Assembly: GCA_030490835.1 (NCBI GenBank)
Contig: CM059972.1
Location: forward strand, 32,653,452 to 32,717,451
Direction of reading: 5' to 3'
Source: Annona cherimola
Taxonomy: Eukaryota; Streptophyta; Magnoliopsida; Magnoliales; Annonaceae
DNA: 64,000 bases
In this document: positions 1 to 58,687 of the stretch, piece by piece
How the letters are laid out: each line of letters opens with the position of its first letter
How positions within the stretch are numbered: the first letter of the stretch is position 1
The notes under the pieces: model-generated
Database searches by the model: none
What the model was told of the DNA's origin: nothing
Seen by the model: only the letters and a program-made list of their open reading frames with translations
Program-made: the position numbers and the translations under genes

Positions 1-1694
1 GAATTAAAATCCATCAATTCAATTGCTCAAAACAACAACTTTTCTCCTAATTTTCTTCACCTTGGACGTCCCCTTCATTATGGCCATACAAACAGATTTT
101 TAAGTTTTATTTTCAGTTGTTTGGACGTCCCATCTTGCTCCATATTTAGGTTATTTTACTCTTATAATCACCTACATATCATGTTGCTTGAGTCATTATC
201 ATTTCCACCCTATTTGAATGGAAATTTTTACCTAGTTGTTAAACAAAAGTTTCACACAACTAAGGTCCATCAAACATGCTTGGTTTAACATATATTAAAA
301 CATGGAAATTATTCACATAATCCATTCATATAACATGATCAAAACAGCAACTTAAATCTGAAATCATTTAAAATTTCAGCATGGTGCATTTGTTGAAAAA
401 ACTCTAGGTCATGCATATCATCTCCTTGATGCTTGAACTAAATCTCTCCTTTCATTTAACATTTAATAACCCTATCAAGGGCTTCATGAATCATCAATAA
501 TTATTCATATTGGCATCAAATTTATGAAACCCTATTTGAGCTAGCAAACTTGAAAATTAACAAACCACAACTTGGCTTTAAGAACCTACTTGAAATGTGA
601 AGTTTGTCTCCTCTTGCTCGAGCTTGGTTTCTTCCTTTCCTTCTCTTCTTTTCTTCTTCTTTTTCTCCTCTTTTTCCTTCTTGCTTGGGACGGCACCTTG
701 CTGGAATTTTTTTCCAGCTTCTGCTAATGCCCCAAAAACATCCCAACAGCCCCCTTTCTCTCCTTATATTATGTTGGATTTTTACCCCTTAATTTCACCT
801 CATTTTGGACTTAAATAAATCCACATTTATCCACTAACTTGCTGCCCAAGTAAGCTTGTTGGGAACATCCTTTTTCCAGCCTTTTTCATGCTAATTTCAT
901 GCATGTTAAAAAATGCAAAATTGCCCCCAAAAATCTCTCCTTGAGACATTGAGTGGAGGTTACAAAAATCAATTTTGGTACCTTTCATTTATCTCAACAA
1001 ATCCTTGTTTGACATATGCCCCATTTGCTTTTCAAAAGTCAACTTTTCATTTATTTGGTTGACTTTAAATCTTGCTTATCACTTATCGCTTTTATTTCAT
1101 TAATGACATGTCACTTTTCATGAGCAAAAGTCAAACGGTTTTAACCCTAAGTGATTAAGAATTTTTTCATGATAATTAGCTTAATCAAATCCATCCATAT
1201 GATAGAACACCTTGTTTTAGCCGTTCATAAAAATTTTCATGTCAAAATGATCGTCCTAGATCAAGATATGAGCATTTGAAAATATCAAATGAAATTTGAT
1301 AAAATTAAATCATTTTCATCAAAATCAAATCATTATCAACATAATCCATTCCATTCATGAAGTAGAGCATGTCAACATGTGCTTACCTTTCAAATTTCAT
1401 GTCAATCCACCCTATGGGCGTCAAGTTACAAATTTTCCAAATAATAACCAAAGTGATCCCATAATTATCATCAACTTAATCATAATTACTGAAATATTTA
1501 ACCATGCCACATCATCATTTCCATACCTCAGTTTTTCTTTTGTGCACATTAGTCCACTTTGGGCAAAGGTGATTAACTAAACCGCCTCACTTGGTCATTT
1601 GCCCGAATCTCATCCATCCACTTTAAAGCATATATTAATAACTCTTGAATACCTAGATTACATTTATTGATCTCTAAATGTTCTAGGTATCACA
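1..1694 (-). mobile_element. Long gypsy LTR, partial (cut by window edge)
   Basis: This is the first ~1.7 kb (U3 side) of a Tekay/Del-type LTR read on the minus strand. It ends on the plus strand in GGTATCACA at 1694, the same terminus as the LTR ending at 23110, and it aligns with 21420-23110 almost throughout (the 'cacc-ttggacgtccc' block, the pyrimidine-rich stretch at 620-690, the terminal 'tgttctaggtatcaca'). The pyrimidine stretch gives purine-rich RNA downstream of the promoter and produces spurious Lys/Arg/Glu-rich reading frames. The flank is 'ataag' (1695-1699); its partner lies outside the window, so I cannot tell a solo LTR from a full element. Confidence 0.8.
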
Positions 1695-3412
1695 ATAAGC
1701 TTAATGAAGGTAGTTTAGAGCTTGTATAAGAATGAGATTTGGAATTTTTATAAAATGAAGGGTATTGGTGTAACCCACATGGGGAATGGAAAATTAGTAG
1801 GAAACTATTAGAATTATATATTCTTTGATTTAAAATGAATGAGATTAGAGCAATCAATTAAACAAAGTGATTAAGATAATCACTTTTGATCAACTTGGAA
1901 AGGCGTGCCACTAAATGACAAAAGAGGAAGTTTCCACTAAAAGATAAAATTAAGAGTCGAGAGTGGTGAGGTGGCATGCACATTTAATTTCATATTCCAT
2001 GTCATTTTACTTTATTATGTGATTAATAGTTTGATTAATTCATATCTTAAGATATACGAGGTGGATTGACATGAAAGTTTAGGGGAATGCCTAAGTTGGC
2101 ATGCCCAACATGATGAACGGTTCGGATTGTGAAAAATATGAATGGAAAGAGATAAATTGATTTGGGTTACATGATATTTAATGAAAAATTCATTTAGTTG
2201 ATATCTTATCACATAGTCATCATTTGAAGATGAAAATTTTTATGTATAGCTAAGTTGAAGTGTTTCATCACATGAATGGATTGATTATGGAAAATCTTAT
2301 TACAAAATTCCAAACCACACTTTATATAAGAATAGCTAATGTCATGATTAATGCCCTTAATTACCATTTCTTTTAACCAAAAAGTCAACTACCATAAATG
2401 TGAGGGTGGACTTTGATGGCTCACTTTTGAGGTGTCATCATGTCATGCATTTGAGTAAGGGATAAGTCAACTAAAGAAAAGTGAGAAATTAATGAGAGGG
2501 CAACCCCTTTGATTGCATCCTAGTTATGAAAATTTGGAGCATTTCAATAAAAAGATGGCAAAAGAAATAAATGAAATGCAGCAGCTTGGAACGTGGACAA
2601 CATGTTTAGGGTGCAAATAAGACAAAAAAAATGGCAGAAAGAAGGGTGGATGAATGGTAGAGAATTAAGCAACAATTAAATATCAAAATTTTAGGTAAAT
2701 AAGAGGGTAATAGGTGGCATTAAGGGATGGTTTCAACAACATATAAAAGGGAAAAAGGGAGTAGCAACATGGACATTTCAGCAACAAGGGGAAAGGAGAA
2801 AAAAAAAGAAAAAGAGAGGAAAGAAGCGAGAGGTACACAGTTCATTTCAACAACTTAGGGGAGAGAAAAGAAGAAAAAGGAAGGAAGAAAAGAAGGGGAA
2901 GAGGAAGGAGGAGTGACATCCGATAGGTACCTCTGTATTTTTATTTTTGATTCATCCATTCTATGCTTCAAATTGATACCCATAAATGTTCAAATTTATG
3001 ATATAAACAAGCACGGATATAAGATGATAAATTTCAGAAATTTCTGTGAATTTAGGTTGCTATTAATTTTAAACTTATGCTTTAAATGATTTAGGAAAGT
3101 TTGGACAATAGATATGAGTATTAAATGAATTGAACTTGGATTAGTATGGGACGTCCAAGCTAGATACTAAGGAAATAAAATTCTGTTATAAATATTATTT
3201 CCATGATTAAACAGATGATATATTTGGAGTTTAAGAATTAAGAACTAATAATTTAAGGATTTTGCTCATTGCTCATGTGTTGGATTAACAGGTGAATATG
3301 AGAGAAAACTTAACGAAATTTGGATGATATAGGGCTCTTTATTAGAAATAAATGTAAACTTCAGAAATTTCATTTGGAAATTAGCCTATTAAAGGTTATA
3401 TACAAGCCTTTG
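1695..3412 (+). mobile_element. AT-rich element-derived DNA with LTR-like promoter
   Basis: No gene is visible. The segment resembles a diverged long LTR in plus orientation. A block at 1870-1950 (aagtgattaag..cacttttgat..ccactaaa) is like 58890-58970 in the plus-oriented solo LTR. A TATA-like ATATAAAAGG at 2741-2750 is followed by a long purine-rich tract (2790-2910), the same promoter layout as the other LTRs here. Neither terminus was found. The last ~150 bp (about 3240-3412) is a partial unit of the ~175-bp tandem repeat that continues after the copia LTR. Confidence 0.45.
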
Positions 3413-4958
3413 TGTTGGTCCCGAGTTGATGGCAATTACCCAAGAGGGGAGGGGTGAATTGGGTATTTAAAAATTTTAAACTTGAATTAGAGACTTTACC
3501 CCGATTTAGTTTAATCCCCTTTAATAAGACAAATGGAAAGCAATAAGATAATGAAAGTGGAAATGAAAAAGCAATAGACAAGATTTATAGTGGTTCGGGC
3601 AACCTTCCCTACTCCACTCTTCCAAGCTTACACTCCCTTGTGACTTGGGTTCCACTATGTATTCCGTGAATACAACTAGAGTCTCCGCTCTCTTCTAGAT
3701 TCTAGCTCTAGGGGGCATATACAACCAGAGCCTCCACTCTCTTCTAGATTCTAGCTCTAGGGGATGTATACAACAAATAGCACAAGTAGGTGACGAGTTC
3801 CACTCCAATCACAACGTTACTTTGCTATAGCTTGGTTTGAAACACCAAAATCAAACCAAGCACCAAAAACCATGAAATAGAAGAAATCTACACTTTACAG
3901 ATTTGTGTAGCAAGTTCCAGCTCAAGGAAGAATCTGTAGAAGCAACGAATCATTTTGCGTTGAAGTAAACAGCAACTTTGAAGCTTGTTCTTCCTTTGAA
4001 AGAGTATAGATCACTCAATTGTAGAGAAAAGTGGATTGAAACTCTTAGTAGCACTTCTTTCCTCTTTTTCAGCTCTTACTTGTGTATTTTCACGTTTGCT
4101 TGAGTGTCTATATATAGAGGAGGGAGAATTTTGAACGTTATAGAGTTGGTTGGCGCGTAATAAATGTTCCAACGTTCAAAAATTCGAACGTTATTTCTCC
4201 AAATCGCAGGTGGAGTCGACTTCGTGTGCGACTTCACCCAAGTCGCATGCTGGAGTCGACTTCGGGTGCGATTTCGGCTATGCTTCATTTGTTCAAGTTC
4301 TTCCTCAGGTCGACTTGGCGTTGGACTTGACCCAAGTCGCATGTGGAGTCGACTTCGGGTGCGACTTCGGATGCTTCAGTTTCCAAGTCTGTCTTCTGGG
4401 TCGACTTGGTCTGAAACTTGACCCAAGTCGCATGTGGAGTCGACTTCGGATGCGACTTCGGATGCTTCAGTTTTCAAGTCTGTCTTCTGGGTCGATTTGG
4501 TCTAAGACTTGACCCAAGTCGATGCTGGAGTCGACTTGGCCTGCGACTTCACCCAAGTTGCAAGTGGAGTCGACTTCATGTGCGACTTCAGCAGCTTTGC
4601 CACCCAATTTCAACTCTGGAAGGAAAGTGTCACTTGAAGTCAATACTGGAGTCGACTTGGTCTGTGACTTCACCCAAGTCGCAGATGGAGTCGACTTCAT
4701 CTGCGACTTTGAGAATTCTTGCTCCCAATTTCAACGTTGGACAGAGGATGACTTTTGAAGTCGAAAATGGAGTCGACTTGGGGAATCGACTTGGCCTAAG
4801 TCGATGCCTGAGTCGACGTGATTTGCGACTTGACCTGTTATATTTTATATTTTTCATCTAAACATTGCACAAAATATATTAGTAGTTAAAACTTACTCAA
4901 ATTGTATTGTTAATCATCAAAACACATGCTTTGGATATTTTACATTTGATTTTCAACA
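3413..4958 (-). mobile_element. Solo LTR, Sirevirus-like copia family
   Basis: A 1,546-bp solo LTR, with ends TGTTGG (3413) and CAACA (4958) and a perfect 5-bp target-site duplication CTTTG (3408-3412 and 4959-4963). It is homologous to the LTRs of the gag-only element at 53381-57700, so its true transcription direction is minus. Landmarks shared by all copies are the 'ttatagtggttcgggcaacc' box, the 'ctctagattctagctcta' box, a TATA box (TATATATA, 4109-4116) and, upstream of it in element orientation, a dozen or so repeats containing AGTCGACTT and TGCGACTT (4205-4830). There is no internal sequence, so it probably arose by LTR-LTR recombination. Confidence 0.9.
4205..4830. repeat. Palindromic tandem array in copia U3
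   Basis: About eleven GTCGAC-containing units of roughly 40-60 bp. Each combines AAGTCGCA, the self-complementary AGTCGACT and TGCGACTT, so a unit can fold on itself. The CpG-dense array contrasts with the AT-rich surroundings. It lies in U3, upstream of the TATA box in element orientation. Confidence 0.85.
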
Positions 4959-4963
4959 CTTTG

Positions 4964-5700
4964 AACATCCATAAAGGTTGTTGATTAATAACCCCAAGAA
5001 TATACATGGTTAAGGTGAAGTTGTAAGAAGTAAAATTTAGTAAAAATGAGCTCAAATAGAGCTGTTTGAGTAGGGGACGAAATTTACAGAAATTTATGGA
5101 AATTTAAATTGCTCAAGATTATATACAAGCCCCTGGAACAATTGCAAGAGTTTTTGATAGATAGTATTTTATGTATATGACACTAAGGTGTAGTTAAGAG
5201 GGTAAAATTCAATGAAAACAAGGTTATATAGGGTTGTTTTGACAAATGAGTATAAATCTTAGAAATTTTGAAGTAAGATTAACTTGTTATAAGTTGTAAA
5301 CAAGTGTTTAAAAGGATCACAAGAATGGTTGATAGGTAGCCCCATGTTTATGCCATTATGGAGTAACTATGAAGGTGAAATGCAGTGAAAGTAAGAATGG
5401 CCTAGAACTGTTTTGAAATGGAGCATTAATTCCAGAATTTTGGAAGAAATTTACCTTGTTATAATTTTTAAATAAGCCCTTGAAATGAGCACAAGGGTTG
5501 TTGGTTAATAACCCTACTGTGCATGTGGTTAAAGTGGAATTGTAAGAAGTGAAACATGGTGGAAATGAGGATATACATGGCAGTTTTGGAAAGGGTAGTC
5601 AATTTCAAAAATTTTGATATGATTTCTATTGCAATAGACTTTAAGTCCCTTGAACTGATTGAGCTAGCCCTCACATGGTTGAGATTTCAAAGTATTAACC
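4964..5700. repeat. Imperfect ~175-bp tandem repeat, about four units
   Basis: Successive units carry the same order of motifs: 'ggttgttgattaataacccc', 'gtagtaagaagtgaaa'-like, 'agaaattt.ggaa' and 'tata.acaagccc.tgaa'. Units start near 4964, 5140, 5311 and 5490, with a degenerate one after 5660. A partial unit at 3240-3412 shows that the copia solo LTR landed inside this array. No coding potential. Confidence 0.7.
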
Positions 5701-6526
5701 AAGAGGAGGTATTAGTTTTGAAGTTACCTCAATTATGTTGATTATGTTACAACAAGCTAGAAAACCAAAGGATAAGTAGAACTTATAAGTTCAAAGGATG
5801 GAATGAGAAAACACTAAGATCATGTAAATAAAGCTCTTGAATTCAAGAGTTAAGGGTTCATAACACAGGTATATCGTTAAAATGCAAGTGTTGAATGAAA
5901 TAAATAATTGTGAAGGGTTAATACTGTGGCGCCCCAACCCGAGACGTCACATCCTTACTCTAAGACCTTATCGATTGGTAAATGTGAATCAGGATTGTTG
6001 CCTTGATCACGCGGTGGGTTCTTAATTGGATCTCGTCTAAATTTTTTTCATTTCACTTCTTTTATCTATTATCATTCATTTCTTTGCATTCCACTCCATT
6101 CATCTTACAAGCGACAATATACTTATAATCAATTGCACATATCAAGTGCACATTTCATTGATAACATCTTAACTTGCCCTTCTACAATAAGGGTCCTCTT
6201 GACTTAATCATGACATTTTCATACATACATTACATACATCCAATCATCAACTCACATAGAACTCAAAACTTTAAATAAATTTATATACATCCACTTAAAA
6301 CATTAAGGCATATCATCTCACACATCATGACTAATCATGTTAGCCCACATTTATATATCATCTCTTACCTTTCCTTAGATGCTCATGTTCTCTACTTCTT
6401 GAGCTTCCCGGTACCTGTCTAAGGTTTGAGAAAATAAATGTGAGTGATAACTCAGTAAGCAAGCATTTTAGGGTAAGACTTTCCTTTAAAATATTTTCAT
6501 AAATATCTTGAAAACTTTTTTACATG

Positions 6527-7014
6527 AGGACATTTTTATGTCCTAAAACATTGTCATATAATCCTTTGTTTATGAGGACAATTCTATGTCCTAGAACATT
6601 TTCATAAACATCCATTCTTAAAACTATTTACAAGTCACAACTGGGCTTGTTAAGGCAAAACATGTGTTTTATCCTCTTTAATTAATTTTCTTTGGTCTTG
6701 TGTGAACATTTATAATGTTCCAAAATATTTACATAAAACCTTCTTTTGCTAATGGACATTTTTACGTCTAAAATATTTTTCATCATAAATTTCTTTAGTC
6801 AAGAGACATTTGATGTCCAAAAACATCTTTGACATAAAATTTCTTCGGCAATGGATATTTATATGTCCTAAAATATTTTTCTTCATAAATTCTTTTGGAA
6901 ACGGACATTCATGTGTCCTAAAATATTTTTCACATAAACTCTTTGGCAATGGACATTCTCATGTCCAAATACATTTTCCATTTAAGCACTTTGGTAATAG
7001 ACATTCTTATGTCC
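6527..7014. repeat. Array of GGACAT/ATGTCC hairpins in LTR
   Basis: Eight imperfect copies of a short palindrome, for example AGGACAT-TTTT-ATGTCCT at 6527-6544. The others start near 6575, 6754, 6804, 6853, 6902, 6950 and 7000, so most are spaced about 50 bp apart. Intervening text repeats 'aaaatatttttc.cataaattctttgg'. In element orientation the array lies downstream of the promoter and would be transcribed. Confidence 0.75.
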
Positions 7015-7404
7015 ATAAACACTTTTCACATAAATCTTTTCCATAATCCCCATCTTGGGGCTTGTTTATAACAAACAAGGCATAAAACACATAATCCATT
7101 TTCATGAAAGCATTCGCATAGAAAATATTTTCTTTCAACCTTGTTATTTACACTTTTGTGTAAAACACCTTGTTTTTTTTATGGTAACTTATTCATAATG
7201 GCTCATAAAATCCTATTTATGATAACTTTTCGTAAAAATCCTTTTATGTTCCAATCTTTGAATTTTTCAAAAGCAAAACATATGCAAATGCATTTCTCCC
7301 CATCCATTAGTGATACTTAGCAAGTGATCATTCTACCTTTTGGAAGAGAATCCATCATTAACAGCATGCTAGTCAGGCGGCTGTTCCTTCATCTTCTCAC
7401 ATCT

Positions 7405-7500
7405 CAGGGAGGGCGCTGCTAGCCTCCTGTCATCCCTTAGCGAATTGGCCATATGTAGAATGGGCCCCGGTCCATCTCCGACCATACTCTACAACTGACT
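7405..7500. other. Conserved GC-rich block of the long gypsy LTRs
   Basis: A GC-rich block (core 'agggcgctgctagcctcc', then 'ttagcgaattggcc' and 'gggccccggtcc') in an otherwise AT-rich LTR. Recognisable homologues occur at 14800-14850 and 14955-15045 (two copies in one LTR), 19530-19640, 47545-47660 and 63866-63975, and in the reverse sense inside 60880-61270. Confidence 0.7.
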
Positions 7501-7568
7501 TTTTTCTTATATTGGTGCACCATACATCATCATCATTAATGTTCATATGCTAGCATGATCTCATAAAA

Positions 7569-7715
7569 CATCACAGACCACAATTTGTGTAGTTTAAAGT
7601 ATCACAGACCGCAGCCCGTGTCCTTTTAAACCATCTTGAAAAACATCACATATCGTAGACTGTCTTTTTAAATCATTTTGAAAAAAAAGAACATCACGGA
7701 CCGCAGTCCGCGTCA
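7569..7715. repeat. Four 'catcacagaccgcagtccgtgt' type repeats
   Basis: Four diverged copies start near 7569, 7600, 7645 and 7693. The last has a GGAC-CGCA-GTCC mini-hairpin. A single copy is found at the equivalent place in the LTR at 18359-23110 (near 19704), so the repeat expanded in this copy. Confidence 0.65.
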
Positions 7716-10700
7716 ACCTATAAAGTGAGCGCACCCACTTTAACAAGTTATCATTTGAAATCTAGTTTTAGGATGACCTTTTTTAAATTCTTTGAGAAAC
7801 ATTTTGAGTAAAATATTTTGATAAGCATTTGAGATGTTTGAGAAAACAATAGATCTTAAAATCCTTATAATAAAAAAACTTCAAAGCTTTTGGATTTTCA
7901 AGAATAAACTACTTATTTTCCTAACATTTTCTTGGTTTCCATTTCAGGTCCTTTTGCTCACAAAGGTTATGCAATTGTACCATCCCCTTCTTAACCACCC
8001 TGAAATCAAATTCTTATCCATATATCTATCTTGCCATTTTTACATAAAGAAGGGCTTGCATAGCCTTTTGCATGTCATTCTAGCAATCCGAAATCAAACC
8101 ATTATATGAAATCAACTTATTGGATTGGTCATCCTTAAACCCCTTTTTAACAACATCCATATAAACATTTTTCAAGACATTCTCAATATATTTCCTTATC
8201 TAAAGGAAATCAAAAATATCATTTCAAACATATGGAATATGTTCAAATTATCATTTATATTTAAATGGCATGGCATAAAAATCAAATCCCTTTTGAAATC
8301 AACATCATAAAGAACTTACTTGCTTAAAATCCATTGGCATAAAGTATGAAATTCTTAAAAAACAGCATCATGAAGAATTTGCCTACTTGTAAGCAAATTC
8401 CTAAATCCATCAACATAAAGTATTTTCAATCTTTGACAACACTTGTGATAAAATAATTATCTTAAAAAGCGTTGCTTACTTCCCATGAAGCAAACCTTGA
8501 GGCTTTCCATTAAAGTCATTCTTTTCCAAAACTTGTGGCTTTTCATTAAAGTCATCCTTTTCAAACTTGTGCTTGCCCATTCATCAAAACATCATCATAA
8601 ACATTATCAATCATGTCAACACATAGAAAGAAAATAATATTTTGAAAAGTTTGTTTGCTTACCTGATATAGCCTTAATCCTTTTCTCCATACCTTTCCTT
8701 GCCTTTGCCTAGATAAATAAAAACGACATTTCATTTATATGCATCAAATTCAAATGCTTGCATCCCTTAGGATTTTCCAACCTACATGAATCTATTTGGA
8801 TTTACGTTAAACTAACTTAACACACTTGCCTTTCAAGTTGGGTGTCCATTTTCTAATTCTCACATTGGTATAAGTTGTGCTTCCATAGCACCCATCCTTT
8901 TAAAATCCACTTCTAATAGGTTAAAACCTCATAATCACTTATGATACTTATTTATATTCCATTTTAAGTTAAATTCCATTACAAAAATTTAGAATTTTAC
9001 ATTTATTTTGATTTATCCCTCAATCTGTCCATAATGCCAAAATCAGACACACTGATCTCTCTAATTTTTAAACATAATCAAATCAAGGAATTTAAATCTG
9101 AAATTTCTCTAATAACTTCATAACTACATGAGTTAACCAAAATAAATATTCCCAGTACAACATATAAAGTATTTATATTTATTTTTGTATTTTTACACTG
9201 CTAGACTGTAGCATCAATTTTTAGATGATTCAAATCACGTTAATTATTAAGTATATTTATACCTTTAAAAAATTAATTTTTATTTTGTGTGAGTGTTATT
9301 CATGATGTCTTACACATCATATAAAATTTTTATCTCCAAATTACTTATATAAAAATTATTAAAAATTATTTGGTGCAGCTGATCCTGACACCCGTTCAAC
9401 CCTATTTAGGTTGATTTTCTCGGATTTTTAATTAACCTACTTATCTTTTTAAGATAAAAATTTGGTCATTCCTTAATAACCCTTTCATGAGTTTCACACA
9501 AATTTTCTTGCTAAAAATCATTCATTTACTATTTTGTTCATATTTTTCTTTCTTACACTAGATTCAATACATATAAACATATCCATGTGATTCATTTCAC
9601 CCTTATAAATATTAAAACATAATATATATATATATATGAGGGTTTTATTTTCTTAATCATTCTGCAAGAATTCAAGGATATATTTACCCACGAATTAAAT
9701 ATTTTTAACCATCTTTACCTTAATCATCAACAAAACATGATTTAGGTTAACGTATATGAATTAAAAACGCATAATACTCACCCAAATTAAACATGAACAT
9801 GGGTAAAACTTGTTGAATCTTTTTTTTCTTCCTTTCTTCTTTCTTTTCCTCCTTGCTTGGCCTGCTTGGGATGACCCTAGCTGCTACTCCTTTTGTGGAG
9901 AAAATTTTCTCTCCCTTTCTCTCTCTCTCTTTCTCTCTCTTTTTTTCTCTCTTTCTCTCCTTGTTGACTTGAACGACCCCCTTGACTTGCTGCCCACTTT
10001 CATCCTTTCTTGCTGTCCAAGAAACTCTTTTATATATATTTGGGATTTTACCCTTGGTTAGCCATCATTTAACCATGGTTAAGGGAGCTTAATTGCCCCA
10101 AAATCCATTCATATTGCTATCCACTTAGAAATGTCCACATGTCATGGACCTTATGAAATTTTCTTGCCACAAAATCAACCCATATCCACGTTCATAACAC
10201 CCCCTAGCTACCTAGGTCATTCAAATGCATATTTTTCATTTTTTTAAAAATCAAAAAAATCAAGGGGGAAGACCCCTTGGACGTCCACACCATGCCAACT
10301 CTCCGTGCCTCTTTGAGGCTAGCCCTTAGCCTCTTAAATCATTATTTAATCCACTTGAATTTTCAAGGATTTTAGCCCTTGACTTAATCCAAAAAATCTA
10401 GTTCAAAGTACCTCCTTTTGACACCTCTCATGGGCATTAAACCAAGCCATTAAGCCACTTGCTTTTTAATAAATCATACTTTTTGGTGCACAAATTCAAT
10501 GCTACTCACCCTTTCTTATTAAGAATATTCTCATGGTAATTAACTTAATCTAATCCTTCCATAGCATAGATTTCATAATTTTATTCAACGGTTTCAAATT
10601 TCATCTCAAACTAACTTTTCTACGTCAAGTTATGATCCTTTAAAAATAACCTTAGAGTGTGAGATTGAAAACAAATAATTATCATCTTAATCCCATCACA

Positions 10701-50999: not shown

Positions 51000-53380
51000 A
51001 TCCCGAAACTGTCTACTTTTGGAATAACTAGGGATACTTTCTTTTTACCTCTTCCTTCAGTTCCCAAGTAGCCTCATTTTCGGAATATCTATTCCATTAA
51101 ACTTTAACGCATTTAATTTCTCTATTCCGAAGCTTTTGCACTTTATGATTCAGAATCCTAACAGGTCTTTCCTCATAATTCAAGTGATCTTGAATTGGTA
51201 GGTTCTCTGCTACTAACACATGTGTTGTATCTGGAACATACTTTCTCAACATTGAGATATGAAAAATATTATGGACTAAAGCTAAGGCTGGAGGTAATGT
51301 TATTCTATAAGTTAACTTTTCAATTTCCTCTAACACTTCAAATGGCCCAATAAACCTGGGATTCAACTTGCCTCTTTTCCCAAACCTTGTGATTCATTTG
51401 AATGGTGTGACCTTTATAAAAACATGTTCGCCGACTTGGATATTCAAATATCTTCTCTTGCAGTCTGTGTAACTCTTTTGCCGACTCTGGGCTGTGAGTA
51501 TACACTGGCGAATAACCTGTACTTTGTCTGTCATTTGTTGAGACAAGTCTGGGACAAGCTTTTTCTCTCCAACTTTATCCCAGTTTAGCGGTGTTCGACA
51601 CCGTTGTCCATATAATGCTTCAAATGGTGCCATTTTACGCGAATTCCACTATCGATACATATTCATCCCACGATCCTCCGAATTCCAATGTACACATACG
51701 GAGCGTATCCTCGATAATCTAATTTACCCGCTCCGTTAGTCCATCAGTCTGGGGATGAAATTTCGTGCTAAACTTTAGCTGGGTGCCTAGAGTTGCATGT
51801 AAACTCTTTCAAAATCGAGACGTGAATGTCGTATCTCAATCGGATATTATGGACTTAGGCACTCCGTAGAGTCGTACAATATCTTTGTAATACACCTTAG
51901 CCAATTTTTTAGTTGTATAAGTTCTCTTTATGGGTATAAAATGTGCAACCTTAGATAATCGATCTACTATTACCCATATAGAGCCATTTTTTGCCTGTGT
52001 TTTTGGTAATCCTTCAATAAAATTCATTGTAATGTCATCCTATTTCCATTCGGGAACTTCTAAAGACTAAAGCTTTCCCGGCATCCGTTGGTGATCTGCC
52101 TTCACCCTCTGACAGGTTAAGCACTTTGATATGTATTCAGCGATCTCCCTTTTCATGTTATTCCAGCAATATGCTTTCTTGAGATCCTGATACATCTTCA
52201 TGCTTCCCGGATGCATCAAAAATGGTGAACAATGAGCTTCTTTGAGAACTTGTTCCTTCAATTCTCCTGAATTAGGTATGCATAACTGACCTTTGTATCG
52301 ATACATACCTTGCTCATCCACAATGAATTCATTCAACCCCTTTTTCTTCATCTTTTCGATATGAGTATGTAGGTCCGTGTCCTCTTGCTGTGCGTCTTGG
52401 ACTTATCCTTAGCTGATGGTACATCGACTGCAAATCTATCTTAAAAAATGTCGTTGCTCCTCTTAACTGATCAAATAGATCATCGATCCTGGGCAATGGG
52501 TACTTATTCTTTACCGTAACCCTGTTCAACTCTTTGTAATCAATACACAACCTAAGACTCCTATCCTTTTTCCTCACAAATAGCACCGGAGCTCCCAAGG
52601 TGATACACCGGGTCTGATAAAACCTTTATCCAATAACTCCTATATTTGAGTTCTCAACTCCATTTCTGCTGGTGCCATTCGATACGGGGCCTTAGAAATT
52701 GGAGCTGTGCTTGGTATAATATCGATTGTAATGTCCATTTCTCTTTCTAGAGGTAATGTAGTCAATTCCTTCGGAAAAACATCTGAAAATTCCTTAATCA
52801 ATAATTTGATTTATTTCCACCTCCTTTTCTTTCTTCACATGTACTGATACCAGATAAGCTTGACAATTTTGGCGGATCATTTTAACCGCTTTCATTGAAG
52901 ATATCCATATTGTTGAATCCTTAGGTTGCCTTAACCTTCTAATAGCTACATCTTTTTCTGTGGTTGCTTCAAACTGTATTTTCTTATTTTTACAATCAAT
53001 CGTCGCTGCCCATTGAATTAACCAATCATGCCTAGTATCACATCAAACTCGGTCATGGGTAATAGGATTAGGTCAGCTTCTAAAATTATTGATCTTATCC
53101 TGATTGGACATGCCTTGCATACTTGGCTAGAGCTGGTTAGTATTGACAGAGGATTCTATATGAATTACTTTATTGGTTTCCTCTACCGGTAGTGCATGCA
53201 TGGTTACATATTGACAAGCAATGAATGAATGACTAGCACCCGAATCAAATAATGCTATAGCCGAATTTTCTAAAATATAAACCATACCTGTAACCACTTT
53301 CTCTTCCTACTCTTGAGACTCAGTCTGGGTCAGAGCATGCACTTGCGCAGGATTCGTAGAGGTTCCTTGTCTGTTATATC
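51000..53380 (-). pseudogene. Chromovirus pol pseudogene (PR, truncated RT, IN, chromodomain)
   Basis: A degenerate Ty3/gypsy pol read on the minus strand. Protease: ALFDSGASHSFI (near 53230-53265). RT N-terminal half: [20 protein letters not shown], then [13 protein letters not shown] and YHQLRI (52420-52700). It then breaks: the Y-x-D-D box and all of RNase H are missing, and the frame resumes at [20 protein letters not shown] (from ~52400). Integrase zinc domain with H-x-H and CLTC (52067-52351); core with WVIVDRLSK, SD and FHPQTDG-x-x-ER (51690-52027); ALYGQRCRTPL; the GPF motif RFIGPFEVLE (about 51330-51360) and HISMLRKYVPD; then a chromodomain end, ENEATWEL (near 51060), after a stop. 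Stops and frameshifts make it inactive. The chromodomain and long LTR place it in the Tekay/Del chromovirus group. Confidence 0.9.
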
Positions 53381-54655
53381 TGTTGGCCCCGAGTTTATGG
53401 CAAAACCCAAGAGGGGAGGGGTGAATTGGGTTCTTGAAAAATTCTTTGGTAAATTAAAACTTAACCCCTTATAATTTCAATCCCCTTGATGAAACGATAT
53501 GAGATAGAATGAGAGGGTGCAAATGGAATATAAAAATGTAAACAATCAAACCAAACAAGAGACAACGATATATAGTGGTTCGGGCAACCTTCCCTACTCC
53601 ACTCTTCCAAGCACACACCCGTTGTGTCTTGGGTTCCACTATTGTATCTTCAATACAATCTAGAGCACCCGCTCTCTTTTAGATTCTAGCTCTAGGGGGC
53701 ATATACAACAATCACTTGTTGGTGAGACCAACTCCAACCAATCAAGCAAAACCCGTTAGTGAGACAAACTCAAACCAACCCCCTGTTTTGCTTCTTCTTG
53801 AATTCGGTCTCCAACACCGATTCAAGGCAACAACACAAAACAAAATAAATAAAAGAGAAATTACACTTTACAATGTGTATTCGATTAAGCACCGGAAGCT
53901 CCTTGTCATGTAGATGATAAACTTGGAAGCGCACTTGAAAGTTGTAGCACTTGAAAGCTTCAATAGTTATTCAAATATCTTCAACACACATGAATATAAG
54001 AAGATGAAAGCTCAACTTGTGTTTTCCTCTTTCTTTTCTCCTTCTCTCTTCTCTCCACGTTCATTCTTCAATGGTATATATAGAGGGAAAAGGGTTCTAG
54101 CCGTTGGAGTGGAGGTTCACGCGCATCTAGAGCTCCAACGTTCGGATTTTCGACCGTTACATGTTGAAGTCGCAAGTGGAGTCGACTTCGGATGAGTGGA
54201 GTCGACTTCGGATGGGTGAAGTCGACTTGGGATGCGACTTCGCCTTGTAAAAACTTGCTGTCCAGAATTTTGCCTTCGAAGTTGCAGATGAAGTCCACTT
54301 GGGTCTGGGACTTCACCCAAGTCGCAGGCGAAGTCGACTTGGGATGAGACTTCACTTTGCTGTCTGTCCGAAGTTGCAGGCGAACTCGACTTGGGTCTGG
54401 GACTTCACCCAAGTCGCAAGTGAAGTCGACTTGGGCTGAGACTTCACTTTGCTGAACTTGCAATTCATGAACTAAAACTCTTGAAACTTAAATTATTTCA
54501 CATTCTCATTTTTATACACATAATTTGAGACAAAACATCTGAGAACACTTAGACAAATGTGTTAGATCCTTTTTAATGATATTGCAATTATTTGTTAATC
54601 ATCAAAATCAAATTAACCATTCTATTCGATAAGCACATGATCAATAATCTCAACA
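53381..54655 (-). repeat. 3' LTR of the gag-only copia element, full length
   Basis: 1,275 bp; minus-strand start TGTTGAGATT (54655), end CCAACA (53381). U3 holds the GTCGACTT palindromic array (54168-54450). The TATA box (minus CTATATATA, about 54083-54075) is followed by a purine-rich leader. Relative to the 5' copy it lacks 37 bp near 53750, probably lost between direct repeats 'actccaacca'. Confidence 0.92.
54168..54450. repeat. U3 palindromic array of the gag-only element
   Basis: About eight GTCGACTT-type units with AAGTCGCA arms, upstream of the TATA box in element orientation. Shorter than the arrays at 4205-4830 and 32160-32640. Confidence 0.85.
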
Positions 54656-55143
54656 ATCTCCCCCTTTTTGATGATTGACAAAACTTAATTGAAATATCTT
54701 CCTTTCTCAAATGAATCACAAATATGTATATATGAAGATCATGAATTTCATCAATAAGCGCAATAATATATATTCTTTTCATGGAAATACTTCTCCCCCT
54801 AAGTTATATGCAATATTATTCTCTTTAAGATATTTCCATACTCTCTCCCCCTTTTTGTCAATCAATACAAAAAGGTAGCACAATGGGGTTCAATGGGACA
54901 TATAAAATAGGTAGTACAAATGAGGCTTTAAAAGATAGGTTCATACTACACTCTTTCTCCCCCTTTTTTTTTCATACTAATCATTCATTTTGAGTCAAGC
55001 ATATGATCAATAATCGATTTCTTTATTAATCATTTTGACTATGGTACCACTTGTTTTATTAGTTTCTTTGGGAGAGCAACATACCTTTACTTACCTTTGA
55101 TTATCATTACTCTTTTGCTCAACTCCCCCTTTCTTTTGCAATT
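54656..55143 (-). promoter_or_regulatory. Multiple polypurine tracts
   Basis: Five purine runs with five or more G on the minus strand: adjacent to the 3' LTR (54656-54669, CAAAAAGGGGGAGAT), and near 54791-54800, 54845-54856, 54958-54972 and 55134-55143. Repeated PPTs are a described feature of Sireviruses. No open frame lies in 54670-55286. Confidence 0.75.
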
Positions 55144-55286
55144 CATGCTCCTTCATTCTCTAGATAGCTTTGAAATAAAAACCTGCATCACAAATATGAT
55201 ATCTTCTTTTCTTTTGGTACCCGTGCTATGGGTCCATGAATGTTAGTACCATAATGCATAGGAACTCAAGGAGACTTGGTTCCACC

Positions 55287-56954
55287 TTAGATATGTCTCT
55301 TTGGCATCCAAACTAATTTGACTCCATTGTAAACCATCTTTCTTGCCTTGCATTGATATATTTTGTGTCCAAACTTATTACAATAATGGCAAGTGATTCT
55401 AGCATAGGTTGGAGTACCATGATAACTCTTTGGTTGCCAAGTAGGTATATTTGTCAATGATCTATCAACAAGCTTCTTAAAATGTCCCCTCACATTTGAT
55501 GTACTAGAAGCCTTAATCCAAATAGGAGAGTTTGTTTTATTTGGTTTGACATTAATGTGCTTTACAAATCCAAGACCTCTCTTATCAACTTGAGTGGTCA
55601 ATCTCAAAAATTTCTGCACATTTTCTCCCATGTTGGAGAACTTAGCCAACGAATCCTTCAGATTTTGGTTCTCCTTTTTCAATGCCTCTGTTTCAATCTT
55701 CAAGGCATTTAGATCATTTTGCAAGGATGCATTCTCCTCTGCCAATTTTCCATTTGCAATGGCAGTTGTGTTGAATTGCCTTTTCTTTTCAATATATTTG
55801 GTACCAAGGCTTTTGAATTCATCAAATAATGAGTCATAAGTTTGTTGTAAATCATTCAACTCATTACATTTAGAACAATCATTAGAAGATGAATAAGAGT
55901 CAGATGAGTTTACCTCGATATCTGTAGATGCATCACTTTCTTCAAAATTTTGGCAAGTTTTCTTTTCATCTTCTACAATGGCCACGCAGCAAATTCTTGC
56001 CCAATTTACTGCATCTTCTCCTTCGCTCGATGAGGTGCTAGAACTTGAGGTAGTATATCTCTTTTTAAGCATTCTTCTAGCTTGTCTCTTTGAAAAACTT
56101 CTCTTATTTTGAATTTCCAAATCATCCGGGGTGGTACATTCGATTTGTATATGTCCAAGACCACCACATTTATAACACTTTGGAAATTCCTTTCTTCTAT
56201 TCTTCATTTTCTTCTTTGAGCTAGAATATTCGTATGAGCTTGATGTAGATTCACTTGAGCTCTTCATCATACTTTTGAGCGCAATAGACTTCTTACTTCT
56301 TAGAGATTCTTCTTTCTTATTTTTGATGAGCTCATGAGACATGAGTGAGCTAATCAAGTCATTTACTTTGAGCTTGTTTAAGTCCTTTGCCTCCTCAATA
56401 GCTGTGATCTTTTCATTCCATGAGTTTGGCAATGCTCTAAGTATCTTCATAACCTGCTCACTTTCAGAAATTGGCTTTTCTAGGCCTTTAAGAGCGTTAG
56501 TGATTTTAGAAAATCTAGCATACATTTCTGAAATTGATTCACCATCTAACATTTGAAATCTTTCAAAATCACCAACAAGGATATTCCTTTTAGTTCCCTT
56601 TACTTGGGAGGAACCTTCATAAATAGATACCAATTTATCCCATATCTCTTTAGCCGTTGTGCATGAAGAAACTCTATCAAATTCTGTTGCAGTCAATGCA
56701 CAAAATAAGAAATTCATAGCTTTGACATTATTTTGGACGGACATAGTTTCTTCTTTAGTCCAAGTGGACGCCTTGTCCCCATTTGGTAATGTAGTGCCGT
56801 CTTGTATGGCTATCCAAGAATTCATATTAGTTGCCATAATGAGTTGTTTCATCCTTAACTTCCAATAACTAAAATTATTGCCATCAAATAGAGGTGGCTT
56901 TAAAAATGATTGGCCTTCGGCAAATGCAGGTACAGAAGTTAAGTAAGTTGCCAT
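55287..56954 (-). CDS. Copia (Sirevirus-like) Gag polyprotein, 555 aa, intact
   Basis: Structural nucleocapsid precursor of the gag-only element. It would form virus-like particles and package element RNA in the cytoplasm. The N-terminus carries the copia gag signature FLKPPLFDGNNFSYWKLRMK (residues ~17-36, DUF4219-like), followed by a UBN2 domain (E-I-W-D-K-L at ~105; QMLDGESISEMYARF at ~135). Basic and Ser-rich stretches follow, then zinc knuckle 1, CYKCGGLGHIQIEC (~259-272, CX2CX4HX4C). A likely coiled coil, with Leu/Glu/Lys/Asn heptads, covers ~385-440. Zinc knuckle 2, CHYCNKFGHKIYQC, lies near the C-terminus (~527-540). The start is the first Met after the PBS (38 nt from it). No stop or frameshift interrupts the frame, unlike every other element gene here. 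The stop codon is not followed by any pol frame. Confidence 0.92.
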   Translation of the reverse strand: MATYLTSVPAFAEGQSFLKPPLFDGNNFSYWKLRMKQLIMATNMNSWIAIQDGTTLPNGDKASTWTKEETMSVQNNVKAMNFLFCALTATEFDRVSSCTTAKEIWDKLVSIYEGSSQVKGTKRNILVGDFERFQMLDGESISEMYARFSKITNALKGLEKPISESEQVMKILRALPNSWNEKITAIEEAKDLNKLKVNDLISSLMSHELIKNKKEESLRSKKSIALKSMMKSSSESTSSSYEYSSSKKKMKNRRKEFPKCYKCGGLGHIQIECTTPDDLEIQNKRSFSKRQARRMLKKRYTTSSSSTSSSEGEDAVNWARICCVAIVEDEKKTCQNFEESDASTDIEVNSSDSYSSSNDCSKCNELNDLQQTYDSLFDEFKSLGTKYIEKKRQFNTTAIANGKLAEENASLQNDLNALKIETEALKKENQNLKDSLAKFSNMGENVQKFLRLTTQVDKRGLGFVKHINVKPNKTNSPIWIKASSTSNVRGHFKKLVDRSLTNIPTWQPKSYHGTPTYARITCHYCNKFGHKIYQCKARKMVYNGVKLVWMPKRHI

Positions 56955-56991
56955 AAAAATATAAAAGAGATCTCCTCAAATAAAATAGAGG

Positions 56992-57006
56992 CCTGCTTTG
57001 ATACCA
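56992..57006 (-). promoter_or_regulatory. Primer binding site of the copia element
   Basis: Minus-strand TGGTATCAAAGCAGG starts two bases after the LTR end CCAACA. It matches the complement of the plant initiator-Met tRNA 3' end (TGGTATCAGAGC...), as is usual for copia elements. Confidence 0.85.
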
Positions 57007-57008
57007 CT

Positions 57009-57700
57009 TGTTGGCCCCGAGTTTATGGCAAAACCCAAGAGGGGACGGGTGAATTGGGTTCTTGAAAAATTCTTTGGTAAATTAAAACTTAACCCCTTAT
57101 AATTTCAATCCCCTTGATGAAACGATATGAGATAGAATGAGAGGGTGCAAATGGAATATAAAAATGTAAACAATCAAACCAAACAAGAGACAACGATATA
57201 TAGTGGTTCGGACAACCTTCCCTACTCCACTCTTCCAAGCACACACCCGTTGTGTCTTGGGTTCCACTATTGTATCTTCAATACAATCTAGAGCACCCGC
57301 TCTCTTCTAGATTCTAGCTCTAGGGGGCATATACAACAATCACTTGTTGGTGAGACCAACTCCAACCAACCAAGTCCAAACGATTGGTGAGACAAACTCC
57401 AACCAATCAAGCAAAACCCGTTAGTGAGACAAACTCAAACCAACCCCCTGTTTTGCTTCTTCTTGAATTCGGTCTCCAACACCGATTCAAGGCAACAACA
57501 CAAAACAAAATAAACAAAAGAGAAATTACACTTTACAATGTGTATTCGATTAAGCACCGGAAGCTCCTTGTCATGTAGATGATAAACTTGGAAGCGCACT
57601 TGAAAGTTGTAGCACTTGAAAGCTTCAATAGTTATTCAAATATCTTCAACACACATGAATATAAGAAGATGAAAGCTCAACTTGTGTTTTCCTCTTTCTT
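57009..57700 (-). repeat. 5' LTR of the gag-only element, lacking U3
   Basis: 692 bp corresponding to positions 53381-54035 of the 3' LTR plus a 37-bp segment. It starts (minus strand) at AAGAAAGAGGAAAACAC, 47 nt downstream of the first T of the U3 TATA box in the other LTR, so it looks like R-U5 only. The target duplication ATATC follows directly at 57701. Confidence 0.88.
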
Positions 57701-58687
57701 ATATCAGCCTTGGCTCTGCGGCCTTTCCATGTCCCTGCGACGTTTGTGCTTTGTTTGGACACTTTGGAGCTATGTGTCCAACTTGGTCACAAACATAATA
57801 TTTCACCATTCTTACGTCTCCTTTGCTACATTCCTTGACTATGTGACCCATTTGTCCACATTTAAAACATTCGTTTGAACATCTCAAACACTCGCCTACA
57901 TGGCGCCTTCGATATACCTTGGAAACAGGTGGTATTCTTTTTCTTAAGGCTCCTTTTCCTTTCTTTTTAACTCCTTTCTTAGCCTTTTCCTTCCCCGTTT
58001 CAACTTGCTTTGTTCCCGAGCTGAACATCTTTCACCCTAACCTTAGTTCTTGAGTTCTCATTGACTCAATTTCCAAGGCTCTAGCCCTTTCTACACTTGA
58101 AGCATAATCGTTAATCAGTAGAGGGGCTAAACTCTCTCTGAGATAGGGTCTTAATCCCTGCTGGAATCGTTGTGCCTTGTTCTCTAGCACATTGGCAATC
58201 CATGGTACATATCTCACCAAGGCATTCAACTTGGTGGAATACTCTGTCACTGTCATCCTCCCTTGGTAGATCCTCTCAAATTCAATAACCTTCTGGCTCT
58301 GCAAACCTACCGGGAGATATTCCTTTTTGAATTTCTCGACAAACATCTGCCAGGTCACCTCCTCAGGGTGTGGCATAGTGATTAACATCATCTCCCACCG
58401 CTCATGTGCATCGTTTATCAACAGATGAGTGACAAATAACACTTTTCGTCTGTCATTGCATGGAGATATTTTGACCAACTTTCTGATCTCCGTCATCCAC
58501 TGTTCAGCTTGGACGGGGTCGGGTTCTCCTGAAAATTTAGGAGGCCTTTGTGAAAGGAATGCATTATTGCCCTCCTGTCCGCTTCCATTAATTGATTATC
58601 ATCCATCATTGGCACTGTAGGTTGAACTGGGTCAGCCATAGGAACGGGTCCTTTTTCAACACTTCCTAGCTGAGCCTGTTGGGTCCT
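57701..58687 (-). pseudogene. Chromovirus gag, middle and C-terminal part
   Basis: Retrotransposon gag domain (PF03732 type): PPKFSGEPDPVQAEQWM in a shifted frame near 58500-58550, then the 154-codon open segment 58496-58032 with ERWEMMLI, TWQMFVEKFKKEYLP, EFERIYQGRMTVTEYS and FQQGLRPYLR. After a break, 58028-57699 carries a Lys-rich linker, zinc knuckle CFKCGQMGHIVKEC and a second knuckle whose first Cys is Tyr (YYVCDQVGHIAPKC). The copia element entered just after this, and the gag/protease frame resumes left of 53376. Several frameshifts; non-functional. Confidence 0.88.

What the first reader, a model, noticed from the sequence alone, without database searches (positions are those of the whole stretch)
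53381..57700. Copia insertion with a U3-less 5' LTR and a perfect target duplication
Seen: the 3' LTR is complete (1,275 bp), but the 5' repeat begins 47 nt after the first T of the U3 TATA box, and ATATC directly flanks both outer ends. A later deletion would have destroyed the duplication, so the asymmetry existed at integration. Inference: the integrated cDNA had the form R-U5-PBS...PPT-U3-R-U5. This is expected if minus-strand synthesis ran through an uncopied PBS to the 5' end of a second packaged RNA and the second strand transfer never happened. The 5' end may therefore mark the transcription start site, and the copy cannot be re-transcribed from its own 5' LTR.
Basis: partly seen in the sequence, partly recalled or inferred. 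Interest (0 to 1): 0.75.

Follow-up and report, generated by a model that had tools for sequence, protein, structure and literature searches.

The report
Half-copied jumping gene patched into DNA
A plant jumping gene sits in the chromosome without its front promoter segment, and because about 12 bases of the interrupted DNA are replaced at the join, it was more likely patched in by DNA repair as an incomplete copy than inserted in the usual clean way.

Summary
A gag-only Copia-type element lies on the minus strand (53381-57700). Its 3' LTR is whole (1,275 bp). Its 5' LTR starts at LTR position 621, 47 nt after the TATA box. ATATC (GATAT on the element strand) abuts both ends. First, the 'perfect target duplication': where the window has GATAT, 39 of 40 relatives of the interrupted Gypsy element carry 13 nt and one 12; none has GATAT. 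A 23-base pattern of the joined flanks matches nowhere in the genome within 3 mismatches. So 12 host bases are replaced by 4 exactly at the insertion, and the host frame breaks there. Second, the start site: chimeric relative L009 carries this family's sequence from position 608, 34 nt after the TATA, so 621 probably lies inside R. The ATAT at the truncated end is also what fold-back extension of the cDNA end would copy. Best reading: an incomplete cDNA captured by end joining (0.5). Main rival: integrase joined it to a target already altered to GATAT (0.3). Among 104 places inspected, no other copy starts at this base.

The parts
53381..54655 (-). complete 3' LTR, 1,275 bp, TGTTGAG...GGGGCCAACA
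   Evidence: 13 of 14 other copies checked have exact 5-bp duplications outside the same LTR ends
54075..54082 (-). TATATATA box in U3 of the 3' LTR (LTR positions 574-581)
   Evidence: TATATATA lies within 90 nt upstream of the R anchor in 100 of 104 places
54656..54669 (-). polypurine tract AAAAAGGGGGAGAT next to the 3' LTR
   Evidence: same sequence before the 3' LTR in other fetched copies
55287..56954 (-). gag-like ORF, 555 aa, Copia-type gag (Retrotran_gag_2) plus zinc knuckle; no second long ORF in the 2.35-kb internal region
56995..57006 (-). primer binding site TGGTATCAAAGC (14 of 22 U5/PBS joints in the fetched sequence read TGGTATCAGAGC)
57009..57700 (-). 5' repeat lacking U3 and probably the first bases of R: LTR positions 621-1275, plus 37 bp that the 3' LTR has lost
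53376..53380 (.). ATATC against the 3' LTR end (GATAT on the element strand)
   Evidence: GATAT is absent from the site in 40 of 40 relatives
57701..57705 (.). ATATC against the truncated 5' end; its ATAT extends a fold-back hairpin
57659..57704 (+). inverted repeat ATATAAGAA (57659-57667) / TTCTTATAT (57696-57704): stem of the fold-back at the minus-strand cDNA end
57706..58028 (-). interrupted host Gypsy gag, zinc-knuckle part, 5' of the insertion
52400..53375 (-). continuation of the same host Gypsy element, 3' of the insertion

Best explanation
The insertion is an incompletely reverse-transcribed or trimmed linear cDNA of a gag-only Copia element, of the form (R)-U5-PBS...PPT-U3-R-U5. It was captured at a chromosomal break inside a Gypsy element by end joining, not by ordinary two-ended integrase action. 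About 12 host bases were lost and a short filler (GATA or ATAT type) was left at both joints. At the truncated end the minus-strand 3' terminus (...TTCTT) most likely folded back on AAGAA 33 nt away, copied ATAT, and was then joined. Shown: structure, contiguous host flanks, replaced host bases, the fold-back match. Inferred: break capture, the enzyme (polymerase-theta-like), and that the missing U3 reflects an unfinished plus-strand transfer and not trimming of a complete cDNA.
For: Of 40 scored host relatives, 39 carry 13 nt and one 12 nt (TATGGGAGCAGCT and variants) where the window's joined flanks have GATAT; none has GATAT. Whole-genome search for a 23-base pattern of the joined flanks with 3 mismatches: 0 matches. 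In about 1,400 bp of host flank compared with three relatives, the window has four private deletions (2, 1, 2 and 8 bp), and the 8-bp one lies exactly at the insertion, with private substitutions at offsets -3 and 0. The host frame continues through the site in L106 but is broken in the window join, whereas two ordinary insertions of this family, chosen because their flanks are coding (L025, L028), join in frame with one duplication copy. The ATAT at the truncated end turns a 5-bp end pairing into a 9-bp stem; a random 4-mer would do this in about 0.4-1.2% of cases, or up to 4% with laxer rules. Capture of Ty1 replication intermediates at breaks (PMC10802722, passages), fold-back inverted insertions (PMC11724301, abstract) and T-DNA fillers taken from the opposite break end or the other T-DNA end (PMC10923293, passages) are published.
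Against: The same 5 (up to 7) bases stand at both joints, which an integrase duplication explains directly; under end joining the match must be a copied filler or a chance of about 0.2-0.7%. By eye I found no microhomology that would prime copying of one joint from the other, and the T-DNA study did not map fillers under 6 bp, the size here. The U5 end (CCAACA) is exactly intact, as integrase would leave it. The host copy is about 8% diverged from its best relative, so an older private deletion at the site cannot be excluded. The fold-back match was noticed after the fact.
Confidence: 0.5

Rival explanations
1. Integrase inserted a U3-less cDNA, using one normal U5 end and one non-CA end, into a host copy that already carried a private 8-bp deletion. 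GATAT is then a genuine 5-bp target duplication. The cDNA is a minus strand that ran through the PBS into R-U5 and never received the plus-strand strong-stop DNA.
For: Exact 5-bp repeat at both ends, the size that 13 of 14 other copies show; intact CCAACA end. Papers titled as showing that a CA dinucleotide is not required at the U3 end of Rous sarcoma virus DNA (titles seen only in the reference list of PMC5041404). The Ty1/Ty3 model makes this cDNA form a normal intermediate (PMC5371799).
Against: Needs an unseen host variant (0 of 40 relatives, 0 genome matches) exactly at the insertion point, although the host shows only four private deletions in 1,400 bp. [quoted passage not shown] The fold-back match at ATAT is then coincidence.
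Confidence: 0.3
2. A normal full-length insertion lost its 5' U3 by a later deletion that happened to stop next to a copy of ATATC.
For: Later truncation does occur: copy L024 has both LTRs cut, and no one of 40 scored matches spans its joined flanks.
Against: Here both flanks are contiguous in the host, and the bases next to the intact 3' LTR are not host-like either, which a deletion at the other end cannot cause.
Confidence: 0.08
3. An integrase insertion or capture whose 5' end marks the RNA 5' end exactly (transcription start at position 621).
For: Old solo LTR L105 has a U3 deletion ending at 620, one base away.
Against: TATA-to-end distance 47 nt; all-purine sequence at 621; chimera L009 contains this family's sequence from 608. 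L105 is 84% identical and may be a chance deletion.
Confidence: 0.07
4. Assembly or consensus error at one or both joints.
For: Only one assembly is held; no reads could be checked.
Against: Two independent joints show the same bases, and the rest of the flanks align cleanly.
Confidence: 0.04

Closest known systems
Ty1 cDNA captured at chromosomal double-strand breaks (Teng 1996; Moore and Haber 1996: titles in the reference list of PMC10802722, of which passages were seen)
   Same: replication intermediates of a Copia-type element joined into a break without integrase
   Different: here one nearly complete 4.3-kb copy in a plant genome, with one intact and one R-located end; the break itself is inferred
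Ty1/Ty3 minus-strand intermediate before plus-strand transfer (Lauermann and Boeke 1994, 1997, described in PMC5371799; the 1997 paper was asked for and is not held)
   Same: R-U5-PBS...PPT-U3-R-U5 arrangement
   Different: here it is chromosomal, and its 5' end is probably at least 13 nt inside R
T-DNA capture with fillers in Arabidopsis (PMC10923293, passages)
   Same: loss of sequence at T-DNA or genome side, filler at the joint
   Different: inserted molecule is retrotransposon cDNA; filler is only 4-5 bases, below the size mapped there
One-ended aberrant retroviral integration (PMC5041404, passages)
   Same: one normal and one truncated viral end
   Different: here the sequence next to the normal end does not match the host relatives either
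TR-GAG non-autonomous Copia elements (search listing only; definition recalled)
   Same: LTRs, PBS, PPT and gag without pol
   Different: no named TR-GAG element was compared by sequence here

Membership tests
LTR retrotransposon, Copia type | LTRs with TG...CA ends, PBS, PPT | tested here: met
   (this copy's own 5' end is cut)
LTR retrotransposon, Copia type | Copia-type gag | tested here: met
   PF14223 E 9e-31; 36 homologs, every organism named is a plant
LTR retrotransposon, Copia type | Copia order of pol domains | not testable with these tools
   this copy has no second long ORF, so the feature does not apply to it
TR-GAG (gag-only, non-autonomous) | gag present, no long pol ORF, LTR pair | tested here: met
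   internal 2,353 bp; definition recalled
Integrase-mediated insertion | duplication of host bases present at the empty site | tested here: not met
   0 of 40 relatives carry GATAT; the locus's own empty allele was not available
Integrase-mediated insertion | both ends canonical TG/CA | tested here: not met
   5' end is AAGAAAG
Integrase-mediated insertion | short direct repeat of the family's usual size at both ends | tested here: met
   5 bases (up to 7) at both ends; 13 of 14 other copies have exactly 5
End-joining capture | target bases lost or replaced, truncated end, filler or microhomology | tested here: met
   12 bases replaced by 4; fold-back match
End-joining capture | dependence on break-repair enzymes | not testable with these tools
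   needs experiment
Failed plus-strand transfer | 5' end at the RNA 5' end | tested here: inconclusive
   indirect evidence places the RNA start at or before 608; no start-site mapping

The most novel reading that the evidence does not exclude
A plant Copia integrase inserted the pre-plus-strand-transfer intermediate (R-U5-PBS...U3-R-U5) as such, joining a non-CA end with a normal 5-bp duplication. That would be a chromosomal fossil showing that a plant element copies its PBS and 5' LTR from RNA, as Ty1 and Ty3 do.
Probability: 0.2. Interest if true: 0.6.

Novelty: new member of a known kind. Interest (0 to 1): 0.38.

Why it matters
If the capture reading is right, an intact LTR end plus a short flanking repeat is not enough to call an integrase event: comparison with empty copies of the host repeat changed the conclusion here. 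It also gives a concrete example of an unfinished plant retrotransposon cDNA reaching a chromosome, so replication intermediates can be read from genomes. If the integrase reading is right, it bears on how plant Copia elements complete their second strand transfer.

Tried and rejected
Other copies with the same 5' end: an exact 25-base R end followed by a non-T gave 3 places, namely the window and two places 3,726 bp apart (L030, L031) whose LTR runs on after a substitution. A 22-base R anchor has 106 exact places; 104 were read (the 100 listed plus 4 in C1224). 100 of 104 have TATATATA upstream; the 4 exceptions are the window copy, both LTRs of L009, and L041/L105. Copies with a mutated anchor, and 5' truncations elsewhere in U3, were not surveyed.

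Different RNA templates for the two LTRs: the window's 5' and 3' R-U5 differ by 4 substitutions and 37 bp. Three of the 4 substitutions and the 37-bp loss are private to one side; the fourth is shared by the 3' LTR with 1 of 35 other LTRs. Later mutation or copying error suffices.

L024 as a second captured cDNA: rejected, no one of 40 scored matches (of 2,939 candidates) spans its joined flanks.

Copying of the 3'-side filler from a nearby template: ACAGATAT occurs once elsewhere in the region, but by hand about 0.2 occurrences are expected in 5.5 kb on two strands, so it shows nothing.

Pairing of R anchors with U5/PBS joints: 7 of 53 anchors in the listed part of the genome have an exact joint at the right distance; the joint pattern has 188 places, only 100 listed, so this was not used further.

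Literature: the titles and abstract starts listed by the searches showed no report of a plant insertion of this shape; most subscription papers are not in the library. Passages of PMC2533021 treat truncated LTR copies as products of later recombination.
Full report
Setting. The window lies in a genome of 792 Mb held without a name; its content is plant-like. The element is on the minus strand of the window. Read in its own sense it has: a partial 5' LTR (57700 to 57009); a PBS complementary to initiator methionine tRNA (identification recalled); a 2,353-bp internal region with one gag-like ORF of 555 aa (PF14223, E 9e-31, plus a zinc knuckle); a polypurine tract; and a complete 1,275-bp 3' LTR. 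No second long ORF is present, so it is a non-autonomous, gag-only Copia element. The gag has 36 homologs at 24-46% identity, and every organism named among them is a plant.

The observation. The 5' repeat matches LTR positions 621-1275 with 4 substitutions, and the 3' LTR lacks 37 bp that the 5' repeat and all 35 other LTRs aligned carry. TATATATA begins at LTR position 574, 47 nt upstream of 621. ATATC stands directly outside both ends. On the element strand the two flanks read GATATAAG and GATATAAC, so the shared string is 7 bases and the end is defined only within two bases.

Is the repeat a target duplication? The host is a Gypsy element interrupted in its gag zinc-knuckle region. I searched the genome with the two flanks joined by one ATATC. 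Forty matches were scored out of 1,420 first-look candidates; each spans the joint, covering 238-245 of the 245 query bases at 84-92% identity. I read the site in all 40. Between AAGGCT and AACAGAC (or their close variants) 39 relatives have TATGGGAGCAGCT or a variant of it (13 nt) and one (L126) has 12 nt; the window has GATAT. One relative (L120) begins that stretch with GAT. None has GATAT. A 23-base pattern of the joined flanks with up to 3 mismatches found nothing in the genome. In about 1,400 bp of flank compared with L106, L107 and L108 the window has four private deletions, of 2, 1, 2 and 8 bp, and 43 private substitutions; the 8-bp deletion is at the insertion point and two of the substitutions lie beside it. 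The relative L106 reads continuously (GHGKAAWPRLMGAANRQGTSTNPVQVHALT), whereas the window join shifts frame exactly at the insertion.

Controls. Of 14 other copies or solo LTRs (this family and chimera L009) with both outer ends present, 13 have exact 5-bp duplications; L011 has 4 of 5. Of the 12 joins printed I chose the two whose flanks read as coding, L025 and the solo LTR L028; both read through in frame when joined with one duplication copy. The other joins were not judged. So these two clean insertions differ from the window copy. L024, with both LTRs cut, looks like an ordinary later truncation: its two flanks are not found together in any of 40 scored matches.

Where does the RNA start? 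The 47-nt distance from the TATA box is longer than the usual 25-40 nt (recalled), and the surrounding sequence is all purine. A better clue is L009, an element with two LTRs and the duplication CTTAT. Its U3 belongs to a large relative (the U3 probe has 866 places with up to 2 mismatches, of which 100 were listed, many in pairs about 7 kb apart), while its R-U5 is this family's. The seven relatives fetched continue differently after the junction. The shared part begins at position 608, 34 nt after the TATA. If L009 arose by transfer of this family's strong-stop DNA to a relative's RNA, the RNA 5' end lies at or before 608, and the window copy lacks at least the first 13 nt of R. Against this stands L105, an old solo LTR whose U3 deletion ends at 620; with 84% identity and a deletion that could end anywhere, I give it little weight.

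How was it joined? Both main readings agree that the molecule which entered the site lacked U3 at one end. Under end joining, the loss of host bases, the truncated end and the filler are expected. The 3' end of the minus-strand cDNA (...CTCTTTCTT) can fold back on AAGAA at 57663-57667; copying four more bases there gives ATAT, which is what follows (57659-57667 against 57696-57704). Folding energy of the end goes from -4.2 kcal/mol (16 of 200 shuffles as good) to -7.4 (0 of 200) when ATAT is added. For a random 4-mer the chance is about 0.4-1.2%, or up to about 4% with shorter pairing and a wider search. I found this match only after looking, so it is a lead and not a proof. Under the integrase reading, the host must have carried GATAT already, by a private 8-bp deletion and one or two substitutions at exactly this place; that is improbable but not excluded, since the host copy is about 8% diverged from its best relative. 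[quoted passage not shown] The identical 5-7 bases on both sides are natural for integrase and awkward for end joining, unless one joint served as template for the other; [quoted passage not shown] I put end-joining capture at 0.5 and integrase with a pre-altered target at 0.3.

Why the cDNA lacked U3. In Ty1 and Ty3 the PBS is not copied from the tRNA, and the second plus-strand strong-stop DNA anneals to R and U5 already present at the minus-strand 3' end (PMC5371799, sections 4 and 6 read). A molecule that stops there has this form. Premature stop after a normal transfer, or trimming of a complete cDNA back to the hairpin base, would look the same, and nothing here separates them. Ty1 replication intermediates are reported to be inserted at breaks (PMC10802722, a preprint, passages).

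Age. Four substitutions in 655 aligned sites give 0.6% divergence, which is young; with a recalled rate of 1.3e-8 per site per year this is about 0.2 million years (by hand).

Limits. One assembly, no reads, no expression data, no empty allele of the locus itself. 104 of 106 places with an intact R anchor were inspected; copies with a mutated anchor were not.

Noticed in passing
L013, L014 (G000:C1224:1-20000): A 20.4-kb unplaced contig is largely made of head-to-tail LTR-internal units of this element with a 3,672-bp period, as expected from a tandem array or from an assembled one-LTR circle.
   Followed up: partly
G000:C1:14684715-14692016; L021; L022: Further signs of tandem arrangement: three R anchors 3,640 bp apart on C1 (internal regions not fetched), and LTRs preceded by internal sequence in L021 and L022.
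   Followed up: no
L009 sense 653-7732 (G000:C6:58422900-58431000): Chimeric element: both LTRs join the U3 of a large related family to the R-U5 of this gag-only family at LTR position 608, with duplication CTTAT; its U3 has no TATATATA.
   Followed up: yes
L019, L020, L015: 5' and 3' LTRs of single insertions differ by blocks of 13-112 bp in U3, so the LTR pair may come from different templates or from slippage in the tandem GAAGTCGACTT repeats.
   Followed up: no
window 56995-57006: PBS reads TGGTATCAAAGC where 14 of 22 U5/PBS joints in the fetched sequence read TGGTATCAGAGC (5 read GAGA, 3 AAGC including L021); shared PBS variants could show whether the PBS is inherited from RNA.
   Followed up: no
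L105 sense 450-1691 (G000:C1:31355900-31357900): Old solo LTR with duplication CTTTA and a U3 deletion that removes the TATA box and ends at LTR position 620.
   Followed up: partly
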